Shown: positions 1,595 to 6,645 of the stretch, piece after piece
Numbering within the stretch: position 1 is the first letter of the stretch
Layout: each line of letters begins with the position of its first letter
Origin: a methanogenic archaeon ISO4-H5
GTDB lineage: Archaea > Thermoplasmatota > Thermoplasmata > Methanomassiliicoccales > Methanomethylophilaceae
DNA length: 64,000 bases
Reading direction: 5' to 3'
NCBI GenBank assembly: GCA_001560915.1
Contig: CP014214.1
Location: 744,001 to 808,000, forward strand
Notes under the pieces: model-generated
Database searches by the model: none
The model's input: only the letters and a program-made list of their open reading frames with translations
What the model was told of the DNA's origin: nothing
Made by a program: the position numbers and the translations under genes

Positions 1595-2596
1595 CTATCT
1601 GTCTTCACAGAATACGGAAGAAGGAGTCTTCAGATCCAATGCCCAATGCGGGCGTGTTTCGTTGTAGAATTCGATATACTGGCTCATGAGTGCGTCATAT
1701 TCCTCCAGGGTTGCTTCTCCGGGAAGATTCGCCTCGCGGCGAATCGACCCGTGCCAGCGTTCCACCTTGCCTTGGGTCGTCGGTTTGCGTACGCCACCCA
1801 TAACATGACGGATACCTTTGGATTCGCACCACTCGTCGAATCTCGTATCCCCTCCGTTATTGGCAGCCCATTGGGTACCATGATCCGAAAGTATGGCTCT
1901 GGGTGTACCGTATTCCTCTATGCATTCTTCCAGTATCCTGAGAACGTTATCCGTCGTCGCATACACGTCGACGGTATGAGACAGCATCCTGCGTGACTTG
2001 TCGTCTATGACCGACAGGAACTCTACCTTTCTGCCTGTAGTTCTGTCTGTTCCCAGCTCCACGTAGTCGATCTGCCACATGTCGTTGGCATGTGGCATCT
2101 CGAAGGATTTGTAGACCTTCCCGATGCGCATCGTGACATTCTCGAATCCCGCTTCCCGGAGCACCGCATGTACTGTGGGATGGGATGCATTGACACCCGA
2201 GATCTTGCCGATCTTGGCGGCACCCAGTTTCATGTAGGCTTGCTTCGTTTCGATCACAGCGTCCCTGATTTCATCGCGTTTCGGAGTGTACTGTCCTTTT
2301 GCCGGCCCCGGGCGTTTCGGGGCCAGCATTTTCGTGTAGCCCTCGATCTTGGTGTATTTGGTGTAGGGCACTCCGAATCTGTGGTAATGCTTTGCCTTCA
2401 GGAAACGGTTGCGAAGGGAACGGATGTGCGTGTGGGAATATCCGAATTTCTTTCCGATATCCCTCAGCGAGGAGCGTTCCTTATCGGAACGCCCATTTTC
2501 AAAGCAGAACCTCTCCAAAACGAGGGCTCTTTTCCGCTCGGTCAAGGCTATCTTTTTTAACCTTTGTTTCTCATGATGACTTAGGGTTTTTTGCAT
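1595..2596 (-). CDS. IS481-family DDE transposase
   Basis: A 333-residue transposase that would cut and join the ends of the surrounding element. The N-terminal third is basic with helix-turn-helix character. The catalytic core shows the three acidic positions: D in WQIDYVELG, D in LSDHGTQW, and E in GKVERWHGSIRRE; YNETRPHWAL near the C-terminus is typical of the family. No frameshift or internal stop is visible, so it looks functional. It is the only gene in the window that ends in TAG (1595-1597). If UAG is decoded as pyrrolysine here, readthrough would add that residue plus nine more before TGA. That stop choice fits arrival from a lineage that uses UAG as an ordinary stop. Confidence 0.92.
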   Translation of the reverse strand: MQKTLSHHEKQRLKKIALTERKRALVLERFCFENGRSDKERSSLRDIGKKFGYSHTHIRSLRNRFLKAKHYHRFGVPYTKYTKIEGYTKMLAPKRPGPAKGQYTPKRDEIRDAVIETKQAYMKLGAAKIGKISGVNASHPTVHAVLREAGFENVTMRIGKVYKSFEMPHANDMWQIDYVELGTDRTTGRKVEFLSVIDDKSRRMLSHTVDVYATTDNVLRILEECIEEYGTPRAILSDHGTQWAANNGGDTRFDEWCESKGIRHVMGGVRKPTTQGKVERWHGSIRREANLPGEATLEEYDALMSQYIEFYNETRPHWALDLKTPSSVFCEDR

Positions 2597-2799: not shown

Positions 2800-5091
2800 A
2801 TGTCAAAGATTCTGATTAACGTCGCCTGGCCCTACGCCAACGGCCCAATCCATCTCGGCCACGTGGCAGGTTCGCTCCTCCCTCCGGATATATTCCGCAG
2901 GTATCATGTCCTGCTCGGCAACGAGGTCTGGATGGTGGGCGGTTCGGACCAGCACGGTACCCCCATCACGGTTTCCGCAGATAAGGAGGGAGTATCCCCT
3001 GAGACCATCGCCGAGCGCTACCACCAGATCAACAAGGAGAGCATCGAGGGACTGGGCATAGAGTACACCCTTTACAACAAGACCCACTGCCCCGTGCATT
3101 TCGAGATCACCCAGCACATGTTCACCCGCCTGAAGGAGAACGGATATATCTATGAGGTCGAAGAGGACGAGTACTACTGTCCTAAATGTGCCAAGTTCCT
3201 TCCCGACAGGTATGTGGAGGGAATCTGTCCCAAATGCGGTGCCACCGACGTCCGTTCCGACCAGTGCGACTCCTGCGGAGCCACTTTCGTGCCCGGAGAC
3301 GTCCTTCAGCCCCACTGTACCCGCTGCGGAACCACTCCTGAGGTAAGGTCCTCCAAGCAGTTCGCATTGAAACTCTCCGCCTTCGAGAAACCTCTCATGG
3401 AGGAACTCGCTAAGAACACCCACTGGCGTTCCAACGTCAAGGCGTTCACCGAGAACTTCGTCAAAGGAGGACTCAAGGACAGATCCATCACCAGGGACAT
3501 GTCCTGGGGAGTCCCCATCCCTGTCGAGGGCGAGGAATGGAAATCCAAGGTCATCTACGTGTGGTTCGATGCGGTCATCGGTTATCTGTCTGCTACCGTC
3601 CAGCACGCCAGGGACATCGGACAGCCCGATTACTGGAAGACCTTCTGGCAGAATCCCGATTGTAAGCATTACTACTTCATCGGAAAGGACAACATTCCGT
3701 TCCACTCCATCATCTGGCCCGCCATGCTCATGGGCATGGAGGAGGGTTACAACCTTCCCTATGACATCCCCGCCAACGAGTACTTAATGTTCGGCGGTGC
3801 CAAGCTCTCCAAGAGCAGGAAGGGTGTCGCATCCGCGGCATCCGCCAACATACCCAGGGACATCAAACACGTGCTGGAGAAGTTCGATCCTGAGGAGATC
3901 AGGTACTATCTCTCGGTGGTCATGCCCGACCTTCACGACTCGGATTTCACCTGGGAGGACCTGGAGACTAAAGTCAACAACGAACTGGTCGCCGCCCTCG
4001 GTAACTTCTACCACAGGTGTCTCAGTTTCACCCACAAGAACTTCGGCGAGATCCCCGCCAATCCGGAACCCGATGCAAAGGTTACCGAGGCCATCGCCAA
4101 ATACCTCAAAGACTACAACACGCACATCTCTGTCTGCGACTTCAAGAAGGCTATCCAGGATGTTATGGCACTGGCCCACTTCAGCAACGAGTACTTCAAC
4201 TCCTGCATGCCCTGGAAGCTCGTCAAGGAAGACAGGGAGAAATGCGGAAGGGTGCTGTACGATAACCTCAGGCTCGTGAAGGCCCTGTGTATCATGGCAT
4301 GGCCTTTCATGCCCAAGTCCTCCGAGAGGATCTGGGGATTCATGGGTCTTCCCGGCACCATCGCCGAAGCAGGCATCGCCGCCGTGGAGTCCGCCCTGCC
4401 CGCAGGAACGAAACTGAACGAACCTGTCCCCGTGTACGGCAAGATCGACCTCAAGGTAATGTTCCCCGAACTCTACGGACAGCCCGAGGCCGATGTCAAG
4501 ATCAAGGAGAAGAAACAGGCCCCCGCCAAGCTCGAAGGTCCCTTCGCGGACTTCAGGATGCTCGACCTGAGGGTCGGACAGGTCATCAAGGTCGAAGACC
4601 ATCCAAACGCCGACAAGCTCTACAAGCTCACTGTAGACCTGGGCGAGGCCGAGCCCCGCACCATCTGCGCCGGACTGAAAGCATACTACACCCCCGAAGA
4701 GATGCTGAACAGGAAGGCGATAGTCGTCAGCAACCTGGCGCCCAGGCCCCTGAGGGGTGTCGATTCATGCGGAATGCTGCTGGCGGCCGACGACGAGACC
4801 CTGGGTGGTAACACCGTGGCATTGCTGAAACCCTCCAAGGACGTGCCTGTCGGAACCAAATTCAACTGCGGACTGGAGAATTCCTCGTCCGAGATCGATT
4901 ACAAGAAACACTTCGCGGCCGTCATCATGAAGGTGACCTCCGTGAAGGAAGGTATCGAGGGAGTCCCCGCGGACGCCCCCGCCTACATCGCTGCAGTCTA
5001 CGATGGGGAGAAAGCGATCACCCTGTCGGACGGCAACGGGACCGTGGCCACCGTCGAGAGGAAGATCACCGACGGTGCCGGAGTGAGATGA
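2800..5091 (+). CDS. metG: Methionyl-tRNA synthetase with C-terminal tRNA-binding domain
   Basis: Class I synthetase that charges tRNA-Met, 763 residues. The HIGH-type signature HLGH is at residues 18-21 and the KMSKS-type KLSKS at about 335-339. Between them, about 127-175, four CxxC pairs form the double zinc knuckle of archaeal and long bacterial MetRS. From about residue 582 a tRNA-binding OB domain (LDLRVGQVIKVEDHPNADKL) of about 180 residues is fused to the C-terminus. The same domain follows as a separate gene at 5096. The start at 2800 is the first ATG and begins directly at the Rossmann fold, with the TATA box about 30 nt upstream. Confidence 0.97.
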   Translation: MSKILINVAWPYANGPIHLGHVAGSLLPPDIFRRYHVLLGNEVWMVGGSDQHGTPITVSADKEGVSPETIAERYHQINKESIEGLGIEYTLYNKTHCPVHFEITQHMFTRLKENGYIYEVEEDEYYCPKCAKFLPDRYVEGICPKCGATDVRSDQCDSCGATFVPGDVLQPHCTRCGTTPEVRSSKQFALKLSAFEKPLMEELAKNTHWRSNVKAFTENFVKGGLKDRSITRDMSWGVPIPVEGEEWKSKVIYVWFDAVIGYLSATVQHARDIGQPDYWKTFWQNPDCKHYYFIGKDNIPFHSIIWPAMLMGMEEGYNLPYDIPANEYLMFGGAKLSKSRKGVASAASANIPRDIKHVLEKFDPEEIRYYLSVVMPDLHDSDFTWEDLETKVNNELVAALGNFYHRCLSFTHKNFGEIPANPEPDAKVTEAIAKYLKDYNTHISVCDFKKAIQDVMALAHFSNEYFNSCMPWKLVKEDREKCGRVLYDNLRLVKALCIMAWPFMPKSSERIWGFMGLPGTIAEAGIAAVESALPAGTKLNEPVPVYGKIDLKVMFPELYGQPEADVKIKEKKQAPAKLEGPFADFRMLDLRVGQVIKVEDHPNADKLYKLTVDLGEAEPRTICAGLKAYYTPEEMLNRKAIVVSNLAPRPLRGVDSCGMLLAADDETLGGNTVALLKPSKDVPVGTKFNCGLENSSSEIDYKKHFAAVIMKVTSVKEGIEGVPADAPAYIAAVYDGEKAITLSDGNGTVATVERKITDGAGVR

Positions 5092-5095
5092 TAAC

Positions 5096-5680
5096 ATGGA
5101 TAACGCACAGACAGAACCTTTCGACGATTTCAGGAGGATCGAGCTCCGTATCGGCACCGTGGTCGAAGTCAACGACCACCCCGAGGCCGAGAAGCTCTAC
5201 GTCCTGAAAGTGGACCTGGGCGAGGAGGAACCCCGCACCATAGTGACCAACATCAAGAGCTACTACCCCTACGACAAGATGATGGGAAGGAAGCTCCTGG
5301 TGGTATCCAACCTCAAATCCGCCAACTTCCGCGGAGTGAAGTCCTTTGGCATGCTGATGGCAGCCGAGGATCTGGAGATGGGAGGCAATTCCCTTCTTCT
5401 CTTGGATCCCTCCGTGGACGTGCCCAACGGCACCCTCATGAGCTGCGGAATGGAGACCAAGGGACTCAGGTGCGAGATGAAGCACCTCGAGAAGGTGACC
5501 ATCAAGGTCGCCAAGGTTGTCGACGGAAAGTTCATGGGAATGGACATCGAGCTTCCTGAGGGAGCACCCGAGCGTGTCGCCGCCGTCATCGACGGAGACA
5601 AAGCAGTGGTCCTCGGCGACGGCAAAGGATGCGTCATGACTGTGGACGGCGACATCAAGGACGGAGCCCCCGCATTATGA
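5096..5680 (+). CDS. Stand-alone tRNA-binding OB-domain protein (MetRS C-domain paralogue)
   Basis: A 194-residue protein that aligns over its whole length with the C-terminal domain of the preceding MetRS: LRIGTVVEVNDHPEAEKLY here, LRVGQVIKVEDHPNADKLY there, with shared SFGMLMAAED/SCGMLLAADD further on. Members of this fold (MetRS beta subunit, Arc1p, Trbp111) bind the outside corner of tRNA and improve charging. Here it would duplicate a domain the synthetase already has. The gene starts 4 nt after the metG stop and its own TGA overlaps the start of the PHP gene (ATGA), so the three are probably co-transcribed. A tandem duplication of the metG 3' end is the simplest origin. The binding partner is unknown. 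Confidence 0.88.
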   Translation: MDNAQTEPFDDFRRIELRIGTVVEVNDHPEAEKLYVLKVDLGEEEPRTIVTNIKSYYPYDKMMGRKLLVVSNLKSANFRGVKSFGMLMAAEDLEMGGNSLLLLDPSVDVPNGTLMSCGMETKGLRCEMKHLEKVTIKVAKVVDGKFMGMDIELPEGAPERVAAVIDGDKAVVLGDGKGCVMTVDGDIKDGAPAL

Positions 5681-6333
5681 TCGCCGATCTGCACGTCCAC
5701 ACCTGTTATTCGAATGACGGTAAGTCATAGCCGCAGCAGGTCATAGACCGCTGTATCGAAGACGGGATCGGATGTGTGGCAATCACTGATCACAACGAAT
5801 TCAAGGCCTTTGAGGACCTCAAGGACAACGGGAAAGTCATCGTGATCCCCGCCGAAGAGGTATCCTCGAAGGACGGACATATAGTAGCTCTGGGTATAGA
5901 CAGACAGATCACCCGCGGGATGTCGATCCAGGAGACCATCGACGCCATCCACGAGGCAGGCGGCTATGCTATCGCCGCACACCCTTACAGATGGTGGTCG
6001 GGACTCGGACCCAGAAACACCAAGAAATACGATTTTGACGGGACCGAGGCACTCAACGCAAGGTCCATCCCGAGTGCCAACATCAAGAGTCTGGCACTTG
6101 CGAAAAAACTTGGCAAACCCATGACCGCCGGAAGCGATGCGCACTCTCCCGAGAGGGTCGGTTGGGGATATGTCGAACTGCCCGACGGACTGACCACCTG
6201 GCAGGAGGTCGTGCAGGCGATCATGGAGGGGAAGGCAGTTCCCCACAGCAAATCCCGCGGATTCATCAGGACTCTCCGTTACGGTATTAAGTCCATTGGA
6301 CAGTGGATGTTCCGCGGGTTCCGCAAGATGTGA
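5677..6333 (+). CDS. PHP-domain phosphoesterase with in-frame amber (probable pyrrolysine) codon
   Basis: Starting at the ATG that overlaps the upstream TGA, the frame reads through one TAG (codon 18, 5728-5730) to a TGA at 6333, giving 218 residues. All PHP metal-site motifs are present: DLHVHTCYS at 4-12 before the TAG, and TDHN, the E/GH pair in IPAEEVSSKDGHIVALG, AAHPYR and AGSDAH after it. A start downstream of the TAG, for example at 5776, would lose the HxH motif that binds two of the metals, so the gene makes sense only with readthrough. Methanomassiliicoccales decode UAG as pyrrolysine, the likely reading here. Alternatives are a fresh nonsense mutation or a sequencing error. PHP proteins hydrolyse phosphoesters; this one's substrate is unknown. 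Confidence 0.85.
5728..5730 (+). other. In-frame UAG codon, candidate pyrrolysine site
   Basis: TAG between AAGTCA and CCGCAG, in the turn right after the HxH motif of the PHP domain. The reading frame continues without another stop for 200 codons. There is no obvious special hairpin after it, which is not required in archaea that decode UAG genome-wide. Confidence 0.75.
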
Positions 6334-6391
6334 TTTAAATAGGTAATTACTTTTGAAGTAGTATTTCGAAAGTAAATAAAACCTGTATTAG

Positions 6392-6645
6392 GATAGCACA
6401 TCCGCGCAGAATCTTCTTTATCTCAAGGGGCAGGGAATCGTAGATGGAAAACAGGTCTGGGACAGTGTGATTATGCCGGGCAGGAGACTCAATTATTCCA
6501 TCACGCAGGAGAACCACGAGAAGCTGCTGAAACTGCATGCTTTGACGGCATCATCGAGGACCTGCAGAACAACGGTACCAAGTACGGGGCGTTGCTCGCT
6601 GAGGTGCTGAAAAACGAAGCGAACCACTCGGAGATCCGCAGCTGA
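6392..6645 (+). pseudogene. Frameshifted gene remnant, unknown family
   Basis: Two protein-like stretches lie in different frames. The first (6392 to about 6540) reads LLYLKGQGIVDGKQVWDSV and continues to ENHEKLLKLH. The second (about 6535-6645) reads FDGIIEDLQNNGTKYGALLA and on to HSEIRS before TGA. They join through one frame change near 6538, and no start codon with a leader is visible, so I read this as a decayed gene. The 48 nt at 6568-6615 recur with about 39 matches at 11950-11997, on the other side of the ABC transporter locus. I do not recognise the protein family. Confidence 0.5.

What the first reader, a model, noticed from the sequence alone, without database searches (positions are those of the whole stretch)
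5677..6333. PHP phosphoesterase readable only through an in-frame UAG
Seen: the frame from ATG 5677 holds the HxH motif, then TAG at 5728-5730, then every other PHP motif in the same frame up to TGA. The ATG overlaps the preceding stop in the usual operon style. Known: Methanomassiliicoccales and some other methanogens insert pyrrolysine at UAG. Inferred: residue 18 is pyrrolysine in a non-methyltransferase enzyme, close to the metal site. It may be tolerated, or functional as a bulky or electrophilic side chain near the active-site mouth.
Basis: partly seen in the sequence, partly recalled or inferred. Interest (0 to 1): 0.9.

Follow-up and report, generated by a model that had tools for sequence, protein, structure and literature searches.

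The report
PHP enzyme with recurrent pyrrolysine codon
A metal-dependent phosphoesterase gene in a gut methanogen can only be read full-length if one internal "stop" codon is translated as pyrrolysine, and the same codon has turned into this stop independently in a second group of gut archaea, which makes it a good place to ask whether pyrrolysine does a job outside methylamine enzymes.

Summary
Frame 5677-6333 encodes a complete PHP phosphoesterase (218 residues) interrupted only by TAG at codon 18 (5728-5730). It is not an error, a pseudogene or a restart: all nine PHP metal ligands are present, three of them upstream of the TAG; orthologues align across it; dN/dS is about 0.08 on both sides; and the ATGA overlap with the upstream gene is kept in 87 of 87 orthologues. 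The genome carries pylT, S, B, C, D and almost no true TAG stops.

New here: among 93 family orthologues (135 of 147 genomes order-wide), five carry an in-frame TAG, all at codon 18: three in this genus, two in termite-gut Methanoplasma. One origin is rejected (delta lnL 73.7, p-AU 0.001), so TAG arose there at least twice (2-4 changes). All five genomes have pylS and tRNA-Pyl(CUA). In two control genes, five TAGs sit at five different sites. Residue 18 is the N-cap of helix alpha1, four residues after Mn ligand Asp14; relatives mostly have Thr/Ser.

Best reading: UAG18 is decoded as Pyl and full-length enzyme is made. Whether the recurrence reflects selection or a permissive site is open. Non-methyltransferase Pyl genes are already known in this order (46 amber genes reported for ISO4-H5, probably this organism).

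The parts
5677..6333 (+). PHP-family phosphoesterase, 218 residues when TAG is read as a residue, ends with TGA
   Evidence: Pfam PHP and PHP_C in one frame; 93 family orthologues
5728..5730 (+). in-frame TAG, codon 18, inferred pyrrolysine; N-cap of helix alpha1
   Evidence: TAG at the same codon in G021, G023, G034 and G047 and at no other codon inside any orthologue
5677..5680 (+). ATGA overlap of the upstream stop and the PHP start (translational coupling inferred)
   Evidence: the same ATGA in 87 of 87 orthologues
5716..5718 (+). codon 14, Asp, equivalent of RNase AM Asp20 (Mn-gamma ligand), upstream of the TAG
   Evidence: alignment to 7ug9, ligands from PMC9410882
5692..5700 (+). HxH motif (H6, H8), metal ligands upstream of the TAG
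5096..5680 (+). upstream operon gene, tRNA-binding domain protein (PF01588)
2800..5091 (+). methionyl-tRNA synthetase (metG) at the head of the operon
   Evidence: in G034 (L209) metG overlaps the PHP start directly

Best explanation
The gene makes a full-length trinuclear-metal PHP phosphoesterase in which UAG18 is translated as pyrrolysine by tRNA-Pyl(CUA)/PylS, with no dedicated mRNA signal. Shown: the open frame, the conserved ligands, purifying selection on both sides of the TAG, the pyl machinery, near-absence of UAG as a true stop, and repeated gain of TAG at exactly this codon. Inferred: that Pyl is the inserted residue and that the enzyme is active. Residue 18 caps the first helix, in the beta1-alpha1 segment that carries the Mn ligand Asp14, and replaces an ancestral Thr/Ser. 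The site was hit at least twice either because an extended lysine-like side chain there is tolerated or because it is of some benefit; which of the two is not decided.
For: pyl genes: (PylS 274.7 bits against cut-off 178; PylB 398 against 348; PylC 343.6 against 248; PylD 216.6 against 150; pylT read by eye), plus mtmB x2, mtbB and mttB with their usual TAGs. In 264 kb of this genome 10 of 206 called genes end in TAG; 4 of those are the methylamine methyltransferases and one an LRR gene read through, leaving about 5, of which 3 are copies of one IS transposase. TAG-carrying orthologue pairs are under strong constraint up- and downstream of the TAG: L005/L006 dN/dS 0.083 overall (0.029 in codons 1-17), L058/L062 0.078 (0.068). 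Five of 93 orthologues carry TAG, all at codon 18; one clade rejected, delta lnL 73.7, p-AU 0.0009. All five genomes have pylS and a tRNA-Pyl. Model pLDDT 94.6; helix 19-29 begins just after residue 18; nearest solved structure RNase AM PHP domain.
Against: No peptide or activity data. With only two certain origins, the coincidence at one codon has a chance probability of about 1-2%, and the test was made after seeing the data. 26 of the 88 orthologues analysed come from genomes without a PylS hit over cut-off and none of these has TAG, but 5 of 62 against 0 of 26 is not significant by itself. dS is near saturation for several pairs, so the dN/dS values are rough.
Confidence: 0.9

Rival explanations
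1. Pyl at residue 18 is selected: its long amide/pyrroline side chain near the metal-site mouth changes substrate binding, stability or regulation of the enzyme, so TAG was gained repeatedly and kept. (A sub-question of the best explanation: why this codon.)
For: At least two independent gains at one codon of 218. The site is not especially variable (entropy rank 94 of 218) and only 3 of 62 PylS+ orthologues have a codon one step from TAG there; chance of coincidence about 1-2% for two gains and 0.01-0.04% for three. Kept between L058 and L062 at dS about 1.2. TAGs in PGI (3) and mmp8 (2) relatives are all at different sites. Residue 18 lies four residues after ligand D14.
Against: Close relatives with Thr18 do without it, and if the three g1 cases share one origin the change was also lost. 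No biochemical evidence; no distance to the metals measured.
Confidence: 0.3
2. Position 18 is merely a permissive spot: in lineages where UAG is efficiently read as Pyl, TAG drifts in where a lysine-like residue is tolerated, as proposed for tRNA-His guanylyltransferase. (Sub-question of the best explanation.)
For: Scattered TAGs in other housekeeping genes of this genome (PMC5011839 reports 46 genes). Position 18 also accepts Lys, Asp, Ala, Pro, Gln and Arg in relatives. Borrel et al. (PMC4153887) argue that TAG in such genomes is a stable, tolerated mutation.
Against: 111 sites have an entropy of at least 1 bit and average about 13 one-step codons each against 3 at codon 18, yet none of the others carries TAG in any orthologue.
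Confidence: 0.45
3. UAG18 is a regulatory switch: an early codon whose reading depends on charged tRNA-Pyl, so PHP is made only when pyrrolysine (methylamine metabolism) is available.
For: The TAG lies early, so termination is cheap; the gene is coupled to the metG operon by ATGA, and the same codon recurs.
Against: Near-loss of TAG stops suggests constitutive, efficient UAG reading (PMC4153887). A regulatory stop could sit at many early codons, not only 18. No shared downstream RNA structure.
Confidence: 0.12
4. Sequencing error, pseudogene, or a shorter protein restarted downstream (for example GTG 5776).
For: A 185-residue ORF from GTG 5776 exists.
Against: TAG at the same codon in five separately assembled genomes. 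dN/dS about 0.08, and codons 1-17 are constrained too. A restart product lacks H6, H8 and D14, invariant in 65 sequences.
Confidence: 0.03

Closest known systems
Non-methyltransferase Pyl-encoding genes of Methanomassiliicoccales (16 in Ca. M. alvus, PMC4153887; 46 in-frame amber genes reported for ISO4-H5, PMC5011839)
   Same: in-frame TAG in an ordinary conserved gene, complete pyl operon, rare TAG stops, no required mRNA element
   Different: the M. [quoted passage not shown] here TAG recurs at the same codon in two genera. No PHP gene is in the M. alvus table, and whether this gene is among the unnamed 17 hypothetical genes of ISO4-H5 could not be checked
tRNA-His guanylyltransferase with Pyl in Methanosarcina (Heinemann 2009, cited in PMC4153887; not read here)
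   Same: Pyl in a nucleic-acid enzyme, proposed to have arisen by neutral evolution
   Different: different enzyme; repeated same-site gain is not something I know to be reported for it
Methylamine methyltransferases MtmB, MtbB, MttB
   Same: UAG read as Pyl; present in this genome with TAG at residues 202/203, 355 and 343 of the frames read
   Different: Pyl there is a family-wide catalytic residue (established knowledge); the PHP gene is unrelated and most orthologues have Thr/Ser
RNase AM / YciV PHP domain (7ug9) and CV1693 (2yb1)
   Same: PHP barrel, all Mn ligands and the phosphate-binding Arg conserved
   Different: lacks the RNase AM insertion domain; scores far below the RNase RNM equivalog cut-off (56.6 against 375); Thr24 there in place of Pyl

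Membership tests
Pyrrolysine-containing protein | in-frame TAG with conserved, selected coding sequence on both sides | tested here: met
Pyrrolysine-containing protein | genome encodes pylT, pylS, pylB, pylC and pylD | tested here: met
Pyrrolysine-containing protein | Pyl found at the position by mass spectrometry | not testable with these tools
   no proteomic data available
Pyrrolysine-containing protein | PYLIS-like hairpin downstream (not a required feature; reported as neither general nor necessary, PMC9499178) | tested here: not met
   TAG sequences mean z -0.84 against 0.05 (sd 0.8) for others; consensus fold has an unfavourable covariation term
Methylamine:corrinoid methyltransferase | homology to MtmB, MtbB or MttB | tested here: not met
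   Pfam and NCBIfam hits are PHP-type only
PHP superfamily phosphoesterase | HxH, Asp, His, Glu, His, His, DxH metal ligands | tested here: met
   invariant in A1, mapped to RNase AM ligands
PHP superfamily phosphoesterase | PHP barrel fold | tested here: met
   AlphaFold pLDDT 94.6; Foldseek top hit 7ug9 E 4e-13, probability 1.00
PHP superfamily phosphoesterase | metal-dependent phosphoesterase activity | not testable with these tools
   needs purified protein
RNase AM (RNase RNM equivalog NF047791) | score above the curated cut-off of 375 bits | tested here: not met
   56.6 bits
CehA/McbA family metallohydrolase (NF038032 domain) | score above the curated cut-off of 80 bits | tested here: met
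   81.4 bits, barely over, a broad domain model

The most novel reading that the evidence does not exclude
Pyrrolysine at residue 18 of this PHP enzyme is adaptive: a non-methyltransferase enzyme in which Pyl has been gained in parallel at a helix-capping position beside the metal site because the side chain is useful, which would be a second functional use of the 22nd amino acid.
Probability: 0.25. Interest if true: 0.88.

Novelty: new member of a known kind. Interest (0 to 1): 0.55.

Why it matters
Pyl outside methylamine methyltransferases is usually treated as tolerated noise. A gene in which independent lineages put Pyl at the same residue, next to a metal ligand, is a rare natural test of whether the 22nd amino acid can be selected for elsewhere. 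It is small, likely soluble, and has Thr18 sister enzymes as controls. In practice, gene callers that treat TAG as a stop will truncate or miss this gene in at least five genomes.

Tried and rejected
Single origin or transfer of a TAG allele: rejected on the PHP tree; the neighbouring gene of G034 does not group with the g1 genomes either. Monophyly of the three g1 cases is borderline (p-AU 0.051) and the upstream-gene tree places them close together, so I count two sure origins, not four. PYLIS-like element: no conserved fold. ARAGORN does not report pylT in the window genome or in G021 and G023; it was found by reading the sequence and by pattern. A local screen of TAG-bearing frames against syntenic relatives gave mostly antisense or shadow frames; only the PHP gene stood out cleanly in the window. 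A fuzzy pylT search timed out. No paper in the library mentions both a PHP domain and pyrrolysine. Supplementary tables listing the 46 ISO4-H5 amber genes could not be read.

Full report
What is in the sequence. The frame from ATG 5677 reads 17 codons, TAG (5728-5730), 200 codons and TGA. The start overlaps the stop of the upstream gene as ATGA; all 87 orthologues whose start could be checked have the same ATGA, so the start is fixed and the 17 codons before the TAG belong to the gene. Upstream lie a tRNA-binding domain protein and methionyl-tRNA synthetase. In G034 metG itself overlaps the PHP start. The window lies in a closed 1,937,883-base genome. Its size matches methanogenic archaeon ISO4-H5 (1,937,882 bp, PMC5011839), which I take as the likely identity (inference).

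The protein. Pfam finds PHP and PHP_C in the one frame. AlphaFold on 65 sequences gives pLDDT 94.6, and the best solved match is the RNase AM PHP domain. Using the RNase AM ligands (PMC9410882) and the alignment to 7ug9, H6, H8, D14, H39, E61, H68, H102, R105, D154 and H156 correspond to His13, His15, Asp20, His45, Glu72, His83, His198, Arg201, Asp255 and His257 (the first stretch read directly from the alignment, the others by motif). All but R105 are invariant in the alignment, and R105 is at least 90% conserved. Residue 18 corresponds to RNase AM Thr24. It sits directly before helix 19-29, four residues after D14, whose RNase AM equivalent is essential (D20A disrupts activity). It is therefore a helix N-cap in the beta1-alpha1 segment that carries a metal ligand. 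I had no coordinates, so closeness to the metals is a statement about sequence and secondary structure, not a measured distance. The gene is not an RNase AM equivalog (56.6 bits against a cut-off of 375); the substrate is unknown, and a nucleotide or RNA 5'-phosphate substrate is my best guess.

Decoding machinery. pylS, pylB, pylC and pylD exceed their cut-offs and lie in one operon with pylT, whose sequence has the CUA anticodon. Two mtmB genes, mtbB and mttB show the expected in-frame TAGs. In 264 kb sampled, about five of 200 genes truly end in TAG, three of them copies of one IS transposase, close to the 1.6% reported for M. alvus (PMC4153887). UAG is thus mostly a sense codon in this cell. 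For ISO4-H5, 46 genes with in-frame amber codons were reported (PMC5011839), so a Pyl codon in a non-methyltransferase gene is not new in itself.

The recurrent site. Of 102 genomes of the family, 101 gave a PHP match; 93 sequences could be read at the orthologous gene. Five carry an internal TAG, every time at codon 18: the window genome, G021 and G023 in the same genus, and G034 and G047 in genus g8. Named records with the same sequences identify these as RUG10898 (G021), SRR873597_bin.155 (G023), Ca. Methanoplasma porotermitis (G034) and a Methanoplasma sp. from Pq454 (G047) (matched by sequence and contig length). None of the further orthologues of the order has an internal stop. Elsewhere codon 18 is Thr (57), Ser (13), Asp (5), Lys (5) and a few others. 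All five TAG genomes have pylS over cut-off and a tRNA-Pyl.

How many origins. On an 88-sequence tree built without column 18, TAG needs four changes, at least two by well-supported branches. Forcing the five into one clade costs 73.7 log-likelihood units (p-AU 0.0009); forcing the three same-genus cases together is borderline (p-AU 0.051). The upstream gene places those three close together and G034 far away. Two independent origins are therefore solid; three or four are possible. The chance that independent gains fall on one codon, weighting each site by codons one step from TAG or by variable sites, is about 1-2% for two gains and 0.01-0.04% for three. Codon 18 is not a mutational favourite: only 3 of 62 PylS-positive orthologues have a one-step codon there, and its entropy ranks 94th of 218. 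As a small control, in-frame TAGs in phosphoglucose isomerase homologues (three genomes) and methanogenesis marker 8 (two genomes) sit at five different places, and marker 4 has none.

Selection. L005/L006 and L058/L062, pairs that both carry TAG, have dN/dS of 0.083 and 0.078, with codons 1-17 at 0.029 and 0.068. The TAG has survived dS of about 1.2 in the Methanoplasma pair; a neutrally evolving codon would be expected to have changed (rough estimate, about 4% chance of no change). This excludes a pseudogene and argues that both halves act as one protein. A restart at GTG 5776 would lack H6, H8 and D14.

Interpretation. I conclude with high confidence that UAG18 is read as Pyl and that full-length enzyme is made; this remains a sequence-based inference until a peptide is seen. 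Why this codon? A tolerated spot, a selected residue and a regulatory early codon remain open, in that order of probability. No conserved RNA element was found downstream, in line with the view that Pyl insertion is competition with release factor (PMC9499178). The finding is a new member of a known kind, with an unusual feature, parallel gain at one residue, that makes the question of function directly testable.

Noticed in passing
G000:C1:565085-565993 (outside window; L198): A bifunctional phosphoglucose/phosphomannose isomerase-like gene of this genome has an in-frame TAG at residue 162; homologues in G043 and G061 have TAGs at other positions.
   Followed up: partly
G000:C1:1273589-1274344 (L203) and G056:C40:32568-33326 (L204): Methanogenesis marker 8 genes with in-frame TAG at two different positions.
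   Followed up: partly
L194:8561-9973 (G000:C1:868561-869973): A BspA-like leucine-rich repeat gene reads through an in-frame TAG at residue 151.
   Followed up: no
window 1595-2596 (-): IS transposase that ends in TAG; identically scoring copies lie in L189. The three copies make up most of the true TAG stops seen in 264 kb, suggesting a recently arrived element.
   Followed up: no
L177:11676-11746 (-): pylT is not reported by ARAGORN in this genome, G021 or G023, although it is present and identical in G000 and G021; automatic annotation may miss it.
   Followed up: partly
L019 (G069): This PHP orthologue has no TAA/TGA at the usual end: its frame runs on to in-frame TAGs at codons 239 and 272 before the next TGA, so it may end in a TAG or carry a C-terminal extension.
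   Followed up: no
window 6334-6640 (+): Short stretch after the PHP gene, before the ABC transporter genes, that looks like decayed coding sequence (for example AEVLKNEANHSEIRS before a stop).
   Followed up: no
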